A DNA stretch of 63,650 nucleotides from Lachnospiraceae bacterium (GTDB taxonomy: Bacteria; Bacillota; Clostridia; Lachnospirales; Lachnospiraceae). The notes beneath the pieces are model-generated. The model saw only the letters and a program-made list of their open reading frames with translations. It did not search any database and was not told where the DNA came from. The stretch is taken from NCBI GenBank assembly GCA_029006155.1, contig JAQXGF010000036.1:1-63650 (forward strand), given 5' to 3'. Both the position numbers and the translations under genes were made by a program. This document shows, in pieces, positions 13,154 to 58,518 of the stretch. The number at the start of each line of letters is the position of its first letter. Within the stretch, counting starts at the first letter, position 1.

Positions 13154-13182
13154 TTGCAGGAAACCCAAAAAGAAGGTATAAT
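13154..13182 (+). promoter_or_regulatory. Promoter upstream of the asnS leader element
   Basis: TTGCAG (13154-13159), a 17-base spacer and a perfect TATAAT (13177-13182). Transcription would start near 13190, at the first base of the structured element, giving an asnS leader of ~230 bases. Confidence 0.7.
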
Positions 13183-13187
13183 GTGGA

Positions 13188-13392
13188 AAACAGTTCAGCG
13201 CAGCAGCAAAATATAAAGGCAGAACTCGGCAAATTTATTTGCCGAGGGCTGGGTTTATATTTTGGGATGGGCAATGTCGTAAGGAGGAACCCGCTTGCGG
13301 GAGGATTCCTTATGACCTGCGCGCCATCAGGCGCTACCAATGGAACGCCCATCAGCTCCTGTCCGTGGCCTGCTGTGCGGAACGTCCGCATT
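13188..13392 (+). repeat. Structured hairpin element in asnS leader (family member A)
   Basis: A chain of nested palindromes: CTCGGCAAAT/ATTTGCCGAG (13225-13234/13237-13246); an outer stem GATGGGC/GCCCATC (13266-13272/13347-13353) enclosing GTCGTAAGGA/TCCTTATGAC (13276-13285/13307-13316, with inner CCCGC-TT-GCGGG) and GCGCC-ATCA-GGCGC (13321-13334); then GCGGA-ACG-TCCGC. It is homologous to 22823-22995. It fills most of the 362-base gap before asnS; no gene is seen in that gap. Confidence 0.8.
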
Positions 13393-22822: not shown

Positions 22823-22995
22823 ACCAGTTCAGAACGGTAGCAAACTGGAAAGGCAGATCCCGGCAAATTCATTTGCCGGGGGCTGTGTTTTCAGTTTGGG
22901 AGGGGCGGAACGCCCCTCAGCCACAGGCAGGAGCTTGCAAAGCAAGCGGATAGTTTGCGAAGCAAACGGGCCTGTGGCCTGCAGGCGGAACGTCA
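22823..22995 (+). repeat. Structured hairpin element in diguanylate cyclase leader (family member B)
   Basis: Diverged homologue of 13188-13392. Stems: CCCGGCAAAT/ATTTGCCGGG (22859-22868/22871-22880); GAGGGGCG-GAA-CGCCCCTC (22900-22918); outer CCACAGGC/GCCTGTGG (22921-22928/22970-22977) enclosing GCTTGC-AAA-GCAAGC (22933-22947) and GTTTGC-GAA-GCAAAC (22953-22967); then GCCTGCAGGC. It occupies most of the 345-base gap 22698-23042; no gene is seen there. A TATGATATAAC stretch just upstream (22814-22824) may be the -10 region. Confidence 0.8.
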
Positions 22996-23042
22996 GATTT
23001 AGAATATCGAACTCTTAACAACCTTCAGAAAGGGGAGTATCC

Positions 23043-31757: not shown

Positions 31758-31764
31758 ATGACAT

Positions 31765-31805
31765 ATCATAAGGAGGGACCCGCTTGCGGGAGGATTCCTT
31801 ATGAT
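31765..31805 (+). repeat. Hairpin module shared with the asnS leader
   Basis: Outer ATCATAAGGA/TCCTTATGAT (31765-31774/31796-31805) with inner CCCGC-TT-GCGGG (31779-31790) and asymmetric internal loops. It matches 13276-13316 almost base for base; the terminal pair differs as A-T here against G-C there, keeping the pairing. Confidence 0.85.
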
Positions 31806-35110: not shown

Positions 35111-35124
35111 TTAAGACAAGTAGT

Positions 35125-35199
35125 GTTATCCGATATAGGTCTGTGAAGATGGTTCAGACGTTTCTACCGCACGCCGTTCAGTTGCGACTATTGGGTGGA
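35125..35199 (+). promoter_or_regulatory. Purine (guanine-class) riboswitch aptamer
   Basis: Three-way junction matching the purine riboswitch: P1 ATCCGAT/ATTGGGT (35128-35134/35190-35196), P2 GTCTG/CAGAC (35139-35143/35155-35159) with a GATGG loop, junction J2/3 TTTCTACC (35161-35168), P3 CGCA/TGCG (35168-35171/35183-35186) and J3/1 ACTAT. The specificity base is C (35188), as in guanine rather than adenine switches. Loop 3 (CGCCGTTCAGT) deviates from the usual ACCGTAAAT, so the class call is by eye. The downstream terminator at 35216 is the probable expression platform. Confidence 0.85.
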
Positions 35200-35215
35200 T
35201 GGAGTTTGTTTATCT

Positions 35216-58388: not shown

Positions 58389-58426
58389 AAAAAGACAACA
58401 CAAAAAAAGATGCTGCGTATGATATA

Positions 58427-58508
58427 TCCCTACGTTGGCATTATCCAAATCAGGTTTTGGGTCCAGACGATACAGTCTGTTCTCAGCCTGCTCACGGCAA
58501 GCTCCCCT
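58427..58508 (-). promoter_or_regulatory. TPP riboswitch (THI element)
   Basis: On the minus strand: GGGGAGCTTGCC, the conserved CTGAGA, ACCC, AACCTGATTTGGATAATGCC and the closing CGTAGGGA, in order. This is the classical TPP aptamer, here upstream of thiM-thiE-thiD-cytX. Confidence 0.96.
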
Positions 58509-58518
58509 TTTGTCAGAC

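What the first reader, a model, noticed from the sequence alone, without database searches (positions are those of the whole stretch)
13188..13392. asnS leader and diguanylate-cyclase leader are copies of one structured element with compensatory base changes
The region 13188-13392 aligns with 22823-22995: CAGTTCAG..., AAAGGCAG, a hairpin CxCGGCAAAT/ATTTGCCGxG, GGGCTG-G-TTT, TTTGGGA-GGGC, GGAACGCCC-TCAG, GTGGCCTGC and GCGGAACGTC appear in the same order. Substitutions preserve pairing: T-A (13226/13245) against C-G (22860/22879), and T-A (13268/13351) against G-C (22902/22916). In the asnS copy the second stem encloses two extra hairpins where the cyclase copy has only a GAA loop. So stems are conserved while loop contents are swapped, which suggests selection on structure in DNA or RNA. 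Both copies begin at or near a predicted transcription start, so they may be mRNA leaders or free small RNAs.
Basis: partly seen in the sequence, partly recalled or inferred. Interest (0 to 1): 0.78.

Follow-up and report, generated by a model that had tools for sequence, protein, structure and literature searches.

The report
Mobile folded DNA element before genes
The two look-alike gene leaders are copies of a small hitch-hiking DNA element that has jumped many times in one group of uncultured gut bacteria; its three-armed fold is kept by paired changes, and copies shared between distant species nearly all lie in the same direction as the gene before them, which suggests that some now work as folded parts of messenger RNAs.

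Summary
The asnS copy (13189-13388) and the cyclase copy (22823-22996) belong to a ~167-nt dispersed family: about 37 places in this genome, 41 of 47 genomes of the genus; BLAST found none in 16 genomes of other families. It is not a riboswitch or an ancient asnS leader: the asnS promoter is older, and 1 of 30 asnS loci examined carries the element there. Recent copies in sister species have terminal inverted repeats and exact 8-bp target duplications: it is a MITE. An IS66-type insertion sequence in a sister species has similar ends and an 8-bp duplication, so IS66-type mobilisation is likely but unproven. The structural claim holds: 40 of 52 pairs show two-sided changes, and in 17 groups of orthologous insertions two-sided compensated changes (49) exceed one-sided breaks (29). 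Rare G-T pairs and two-sided changes at low divergence point to arm-to-arm copying (template switching). Insertions shared between diverged genomes are sense to the upstream gene in 13 of 14 groups (48 of 113 among unshared copies), suggesting RNA-level retention. Many old copies carry a partial second copy of their own first arm downstream; this is unexplained.

The parts
13154..13182 (+). asnS promoter TTGCAG-17-TATAAT, belonging to the host, not to the element
   Evidence: Read directly; a like promoter is visible in 22 of 29 element-free asnS loci, 14 of them with TTGCAG, by my reading. The tool's consensus scan found nothing at its threshold here.
13189..13388 (+). Element copy A (asnS 5' UTR), starting at about the predicted transcription start
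   Evidence: Covariance model hit 84.7 bits, E 1.5e-21; HMM hit 13191-13272
13208..13264 (+). Arm 1 of copy A, long hairpin with the hypervariable stem
   Evidence: Fold; family alignment
13266..13353 (+). Arm 2 of copy A (GATGGGC / GCCCATC) with the nested module in its loop
13277..13337 (+). Nested module: hairpin TCGTAAGGAGG...CCTTATGA plus REP-like hairpin GCGCCATCAGGCGCTAC; flanked by direct repeat CAATG
   Evidence: Same module at 8 places in the fetched own-genome loci, and its first hairpin in a second repeat family
13354..13388 (+). Remnant of arm 3 and right outer stem of copy A (arm 3 largely deleted)
   Evidence: Comparison with copy B and alignment A1
22823..22996 (+).
   Evidence: Covariance model 146.3 bits, E 1.0e-39
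22825..22841 (+). Left terminal repeat / left half of outer stem of copy B
   Evidence: Alignment and consensus fold
22841..22898 (+). Arm 1 of copy B; its tip with the following T-rich stretch also matches the terminator-like pattern
   Evidence: 22858-22881
22900..22918 (+). Arm 2 of copy B, GAGGGGC-GGAAC-GCCCCTC
22920..22979 (+). Arm 3 of copy B, stem with two hairpins
22980..22996 (+). Right half of outer stem / right terminal repeat of copy B

Best explanation
The element is a miniature inverted-repeat transposable element (MITE), most likely moved by an IS66-type transposase acting on its GTAAC...GTTAC ends and leaving an 8-bp target duplication. It inserts at A/T-rich targets, in either orientation. 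Transcribed across, it folds into a closing stem with three arms. Its arms stay complementary because mutations in one arm are often copied to the other (template switching in the DNA hairpin) and because broken folds are removed by selection. Copies inserted in sense downstream of a gene, often between two co-directional genes, tend to be kept for long times and keep their fold, probably because the folded RNA became a useful 5'-UTR, intercistronic or 3'-UTR part (barrier, processing or attenuation site). SHOWN by sequence: mobility, ends, target duplication, fold, post-insertion compensation, sense bias of shared old copies. INFERRED: IS66-type mobilisation, template switching, selection on the RNA and its use. 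The asnS and cyclase copies are two such insertions in mRNA leaders; no specific regulation of those genes is shown.
For: Copy number and range: 42 model matches, about 37 places, in the own genome; 41 of 47 genus genomes (counts per genome are lower bounds); by BLAST 19 of 25 genus genomes and 0 of 16 genomes of other families. Mobility: of 116 copies tested (a set rich in recent copies by choice) 26 share a flank repeat of 8 or more bases, about 2 expected with shuffled flanks; asnS loci of relatives without the element. Ends: IS66-type element L293, 2267 bp, TSD ACTATTTT on both sides, ends GTTACTATTCAC; the same right-end motif beside 3 of 4 homologues, L338, L339 and, as GTTACTGTTCAC, L340; MITE ends GTAACAGTTCAG and GTAACTATTCAG. 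Fold: 96.6% of 1974 cells pair, 40 of 52 pairs with two-sided changes, 212 such cells against 45.5 in shuffles, 0 of 500 shuffles as high. After insertion: 17 orthologous groups, most diverged pair of each: 49 two-sided kept, 14 one-sided kept, 29 one-sided broken, 6 two-sided broken. In 12 of 14 orthologous pairs the fastest codon phase of the upstream flank differs by 0.28-0.55, the element by 0.06-0.31 (unpaired) and 0.03-0.20 (paired). Template switching: 206 two-sided changes against 7.7 expected even below 5% divergence. Sense retention: 13:1 against 48:65, p 0.0003.
Against: No complete autonomous partner with the MITE's own ends was found: no IS66 domain in G000, G010, G048, G052, G053 or G054; IS256 gave only weak fragments in 2 of 9 genomes; ISL3 occurs in 7 of 15, ends not examined. 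The IS66 end rule GTAA is recalled. G-T pairs are only 65 of 5817 cells, low (recalled yardstick) for an RNA kept by selection alone. The sense bias was found after looking, with gene calls of my own making; the downstream-gene bias is not significant (p 0.39). Over all copies orientation is not consistently biased. The focal copies are not among the orthologous groups, show no target duplication, and copy A has lost an arm. In L056/L038 the element's unpaired positions differ almost as much as the flank (0.24 against 0.28), in L046/L065 equally (0.06). Adjacent double changes exceed shuffles only modestly (11 against 5.7, sd 1.9).
Confidence: 0.68

Rival explanations
1. A pure genomic parasite: arms are kept complementary only by template-switch copying between the two halves of each hairpin, with no use to the host and no selection on RNA.
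For: Two-sided changes dominate even between near-identical copies (206 against 7.7 expected); G-T pairs are rare; 23 of 53 two-sided changes in orthologous groups are of transversion type, which have no G-T intermediate. The mechanism is described for RNA genes in PMC8794818 (abstract and start of introduction read).
Against: In 12 of 14 orthologous pairs the element's unpaired positions changed less than the fastest codon phase beside them, though in L056/L038 only slightly; copies shared between diverged genomes are sense-biased; several blocks, some unpaired in the consensus fold, are nearly invariant.
Confidence: 0.22
2. The fold is needed in DNA, for transposition (hairpin or cruciform recognised by the transposase or host replication factors), and RNA plays no part.
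For: New copies are inserted in both orientations; near-perfect Watson-Crick pairing suits DNA; tiny elements of 41-68 nt keep near-perfect end repeats.
Against: Elements of 41-68 nt lacking the arms carry perfect (64 nt) or 6-7 of 8 matching duplications, so the arms seem not needed to move; compensation continues after insertion.
Confidence: 0.12
3. A true host leader-RNA family (riboswitch, T-box or protein-binding leader) that regulates asnS, the cyclase gene and others as a regulon.
For: Copy A starts at about the predicted transcription start; strong conserved fold.
Against: No Rfam family at either copy at gathering score nor above chance at copy A; only 1 of 30 asnS loci has it; target duplications. 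Neighbouring genes looked unrelated on reading, but I did not annotate them.
Confidence: 0.03
4. REP-type palindromes moved by Y1 (RAYT) transposases.
For: Three Y1 transposase matches in the own genome; the nested module ends in a REP-like GTAG hairpin.
Against: The main element has inverted ends with 8-bp duplications, which Y1 transposases do not make (recalled).
Confidence: 0.02

Closest known systems
MITEs with structured transcripts: Correia (Neisseria), ERIC (enterobacteria)
   Same: Short, many copies, terminal repeats, intergenic, stable transcript folds; RNase III cuts Correia-bearing mRNAs, and ERIC effects on mRNA stability depend on orientation (passages of PMC10969869, and PMC2229807)
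   Different: No sequence comparison was run; here the ends are IS66-like, the element has three arms, two-sided compensation is measured across orthologous insertions, and many old copies carry own-arm duplicates
BOX elements of Streptococcus pneumoniae
   Same: Structured, intergenic, found clustered with and inserted into other elements (review passages); modular build is recalled
   Different: Host differs; modules and ends were not compared; membership not tested by sequence
IS66-family insertion sequences
   Same: 8-bp duplications (two IS66 elements tabulated with 8 in PMC3281130, passages seen); ends near those of L293
   Different: No transposase gene in the element; L293's transposase is itself below the NCBIfam IS66 cut-off (140 against 180 bits) although over the Pfam cut-off (41 against 23 bits)
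Template-switch-maintained RNA hairpins (PMC8794818, abstract and start of introduction read)
   Same: Multi-base compensatory changes without intermediates
   Different: That work reconstructed histories of RNA genes (rRNA named in its outline); here a bacterial MITE family

Membership tests
MITE | Short, no transposase gene | tested here: met
   ~167 nt, alignment of 38 copies
MITE | Terminal inverted repeats | tested here: met
   GTAACAGTTCAGAACAGC / GTAACTATTCAGAACAGC ends
MITE | Target site duplication | tested here: met
   26 of 116 copies share flank repeats of 8 or more bases, about 2 expected. The two window copies themselves show none
MITE | Filled and empty sites | tested here: met
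   asnS 5' region: 1 of 30 loci filled; 3 of the 29 others cut short upstream
MITE | Autonomous partner with the same ends | tested here: inconclusive
   No IS66 domain in G000, G010, G048, G052-G054. IS66-type genes with near-identical ends lie in element-bearing G015 (complete), G050 and G008 (fragments). Draft genomes, so absence is weak
IS66-derived | 8-bp duplication and IS66-like ends | tested here: met
   Right end 10 of 12, left end 8 of 12 positions as in L293; GTAA rule recalled
IS66-derived | Mobilised by an IS66 transposase | not testable with these tools
   Needs a mobility assay
Rfam RNA family | Score above a curated threshold | tested here: not met
   No gathering-score hit at the two copies; copy A at E up to 5 gave two hits far below gathering score; six loci at E up to 0.5 gave three T-boxes, none on an element match
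T-box leader (asnS) | RF00230 match | tested here: not met
Cyclic-di-GMP riboswitch (cyclase) | Rfam match | tested here: not met
REP/RAYT | GTAG-type palindrome moved by a Y1 transposase | tested here: inconclusive
   Main element: no. Nested module has GTAG + hairpin; Y1 genes exist, link not tested
BOX, ERIC, Correia | Sequence homology | not tested
   No reference sequences compared

The most novel reading that the evidence does not exclude
Old sense copies have turned into attenuator-like switches. A partial second copy of the element's own first arm lies just downstream (21 of 35 old orthologous copies, 1 of 29 copies with a fresh target duplication, 17 of 95 others, 0 upstream in any class; with an unrelated copy as query 4 of 35, 1 of 29, 6 of 95). 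It often changes in step with the first arm between species (nine comparisons: 34 sites concerted, 20 constant, 24 other; strongest L085/L074 and L065/L050, absent in L083/L233 and L038/L381). It could compete for the same partner strand, and in convergent contexts it ends in a T-run like a terminator (L051, L410, L412; read). A transposable element would thus repeatedly build switchable leaders and tails.
Probability: 0.13. Interest if true: 0.85.

Novelty: new variant of a known kind. Interest (0 to 1): 0.57.

Why it matters
It turns an apparent pair of gene leaders into a large natural experiment: one folded mobile element at many sites, fresh and old, whose orthologous copies show compensatory change at known sites. 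This makes it possible to separate selection on RNA folds from template-switch copying, and to ask how mobile DNA becomes part of bacterial mRNAs. It also warns that covariation alone does not prove a dedicated riboregulator.

Tried and rejected
Rfam searches at both thresholds gave no family for the element. Phage and plasmid collections and one viral-contig pattern scan: no match. A second viral-contig scan with the end motif gave 5 stretches that I did not follow. IS256 and ISL3 as movers: weak fragments in 2 of 9 genomes and hits in 7 of 15; I did not inspect the ISL3 ends. An apparent IS66 end GTAAGGGTTCAG in L286 was dropped because it seems to be part of the transposase coding sequence (judged from a recalled C-terminal motif, not tested). 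Long-spaced ends in G010 and G013 (fetched) showed no long pair with matching duplications, and the first residues of the ORFs between them did not look like a transposase to me (not annotated). A first ortholog list held doubtful groups (L244/L068, L247/L014), absent from the stricter list, though L247/L014 returns at the loosest setting. L016/L168/L173 is kept: same place after the stop codon, strongly diverged copies. An overall orientation bias was expected from early reading and was not consistently found: of five score cut-offs one gave p 0.043 for the older half's downstream gene. Literature: 'dispersed repeat' with Lachnospiraceae, the end sequence as a word, IS66 and MITE, structured MITEs and repeats, template switching: none of the listed titles is on this element; only the listed top rows were seen and subscription papers are mostly not held. 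Genes near each element come from a codon-score script of mine that sets aside gene calls overlapping the element, not from an annotation. The asnS-side gene search for the cyclase locus did not help, because the cyclase gene does not follow the searched gene in the 29 relatives.

Full report
WHAT IS THERE. Both fold well below shuffled sequence (z -6.5 and -7.1). The asnS copy carries a 61-nt module inside its second arm, flanked by the direct repeat CAATG, and has lost most of its third arm; the cyclase copy is complete.

A DISPERSED FAMILY. BLAST with copy A gives 42 matches in the own genome, 19 of them only to the nested module. The covariance model R1, built from 38 copies, gives 42 matches in the own genome, 5 of them overlapping another on the opposite strand, so about 37 places, some weak, and hits in 41 of 47 genomes of the genus (59 candidates per genome were scored, so counts are lower bounds). 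BLAST with copy B hit 19 of 41 genomes, all of the same genus (19 of 25), and 0 of 16 in other families of the order. A consensus pattern in the collection of 84,980 species genomes found 44 stretches, titled Lachnospiraceae, Clostridiales or Oscillospiraceae MAGs. Viral contigs with the same pattern, phages and plasmids gave none. Rfam has no such family at the thresholds tried.

IT MOVES. An asnS-like match exists in 47 of 47 genus genomes, at least one only a distant paralogue; I examined the 30 for which loci were returned, all of 86% identity or more. In 29 no element was found in the 5' region (3 of these loci are cut to 49, 109 and 160 nt upstream); 22 of the 29 show a TTGCAG, TTGCGG or TTGCTA...TATAAT promoter by my reading, 14 of them TTGCAG. 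Only the own genome has the element there, and G024 has a different copy just after the asnS stop codon. So the element landed at about the start site of an older promoter. The cyclase locus could not be tested this way, because the cyclase gene does not follow the searched neighbour in the 29 relatives. Recent copies from sister species show ends GTAACAGTTCAG...CTGAATAGTTAC flanked by perfect 8-bp duplications: of 116 copies tested, a set chosen partly for high scores, 26 share a flank repeat of 8 or more bases and 9 share 7, against about 2.1 and 4.5 with shuffled flanks. Elements of other sizes share these ends: 64 and 227 nt with perfect duplications; 41, 59, 63, 68, 276 and 328 nt with 7 of 8; 52, 57 and 277 nt with 6 of 8; three further short pairs of ends had fewer. 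The window copies show no clear duplication.

WHAT MOVES IT. 21 of 47 genus genomes have an IS66-domain match, but not the own genome nor the element-rich G010, G048, G052, G053 and G054. A scan of the 30 IS66, 3 Y1 and 2 IS256 loci for inverted ends plus 8-bp duplications printed two cases, one weak (L276) and one convincing, L293 from G015: 2267 bp, ends GTTACTATTCAC, duplication ACTATTTT. Its 530-residue protein matches Pfam IS66 above cut-off and NCBIfam IS66 below cut-off. The same right-end motif stands beside 3 of 4 homologues: L338 in G050 (85% identical), L339 in G008 (56%, a fragment), and as GTTACTGTTCAC L340 in G007 (about 27%); not beside the weak L341. G015, G050 and G008 bear the MITE (18, 15 and 46 matches); G007 has none. 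The MITE's right end matches L293's at 10 of 12 positions and its left end at 8 of 12. 8-bp duplications are tabulated for two IS66 elements in PMC3281130 (passages seen); the GTAA end rule is recalled. So IS66-type mobilisation is the best guess, unproven.

THE FOLD IS CONSERVED. On 38 copies, 96.6% of 1974 cells form standard pairs; 40 of 52 pairs have two-sided changes; 212 cells are changed on both sides against 45.5 in shuffles, and none of 500 shuffles reaches any of the five measures; sliding the partners drops pairing to 35-42%. On 113 distinct sequences of 120 copies there are 5628 Watson-Crick cells, 65 G-T, 27 A-C and 97 others, 59 gaps. Even between copies whose unpaired positions differ by under 5%, 206 two-sided changes are seen where independence predicts 7.7, beside 222 one-sided ones (sequence pairs are not independent). 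Two-sided changes with few G-T intermediates fit template switching, proposed for RNA genes in PMC8794818 (abstract and start of introduction read). Clustering of adjacent double changes is modest (11 against 5.7, sd 1.9).

AFTER INSERTION. 159 distinct copies gave 17 groups in which different genomes share the same insertion site by upstream flank; two groups are very close pairs. Taking the most diverged pair per group: 763 pairs unchanged, 49 two-sided kept, 14 one-sided kept, 29 one-sided broken, 6 two-sided broken, 23 gaps; independence would give about 7 two-sided changes (my arithmetic on those counts). For the 14 pairs of seven groups tabulated, the fastest phase of the upstream flank differs by 0.06-0.55 (0.28 or more in 12 of 14), element unpaired positions by 0.05-0.31 and paired by 0.02-0.20; the spacer after the element ranges from nearly identical to saturated. 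In L056/L038 the unpaired positions are almost as diverged as the flank (0.24 against 0.28) and in L046/L065 equally (0.06). Of the 17 copies in those groups 14 are nearest to an orthologue, L085 is level, and L056 and L050 are nearer to another copy, which mostly argues against homogenisation by paralogues. G-T and A-C event types hint at the strand: in old copies sense to the upstream gene 19 against 7, in antisense ones 8 against 8 (the contrast was not tested and is small).

ORIENTATION. Over all copies there is no consistent bias (one of five cut-offs gave p 0.043 for the downstream gene of older copies). Groups shared between genomes with flank identity under 88% are sense to the upstream gene in 13 of 14, against 48 of 113 singletons (p 0.0003); +E+ against -E- is 10:1 compared with 43:42 (p 0.02); the downstream gene alone shows nothing (p 0.39). 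This was post hoc and uncorrected; three detection settings agree (p 0.0001-0.0003 for the upstream gene).

UNEXPLAINED. 21 of 35 old orthologous copies, but 1 of 29 with fresh duplications, carry downstream a partial second copy of their own first arm (17 of 95 others; controls with an unrelated copy 4 of 35, 1 of 29, 6 of 95). It begins near the same element position in most of the printed cases and bears the copy's own hypervariable sequence; in several groups it changed in step with the first arm (nine comparisons: 34 concerted, 20 constant, 24 other sites; none concerted in L083/L233 and L038/L381). L033 and L050 look like partly deleted tandem arrays. I offer an attenuator-like switch as the boldest reading; arm-to-arm copying of all three strands is the plainer one.

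VERDICT. What it called leaders are insertions of a mobile element that may have been adopted as mRNA parts in some places. New variant of a known kind (structured MITE).

Noticed in passing
window 31763-31804 (L020) and e.g. L018, L019, L021, L024-L030: A second repeat family containing the hairpin TCATAAGGAGGGACCCGCTTGCGGGAGGATTCCTTATGA, nearly the same as the first hairpin nested in the asnS copy: hairpin modules seem to be exchanged between repeat families.
   Followed up: partly
L033 1669-1811; L050 1292-1420: Tandem array-like structure: full element, copy-specific spacer, internally deleted element, nearly the same spacer, start of a third unit.
   Followed up: partly
L303 226-289, L304, L305, L306, L307: Tiny palindromes of 41-68 nt with the same ends; the 64-nt one with a perfect 8-bp duplication, the others listed with 7 of 8: apparently arm-less mobile forms.
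   Followed up: partly
L293 1218-3484: IS66-type element with end GTTACTATTCAC and a 109-residue ORF without a clear family match beside the transposase.
   Followed up: partly
window 58410-58518 (-) and 35111-35210 (+): TPP and purine riboswitches above gathering score.
   Followed up: no
G000 contigs C29 (two) and C103; L039-L041: Three Y1-type transposase matches, possible movers of the REP-like nested module.
   Followed up: no
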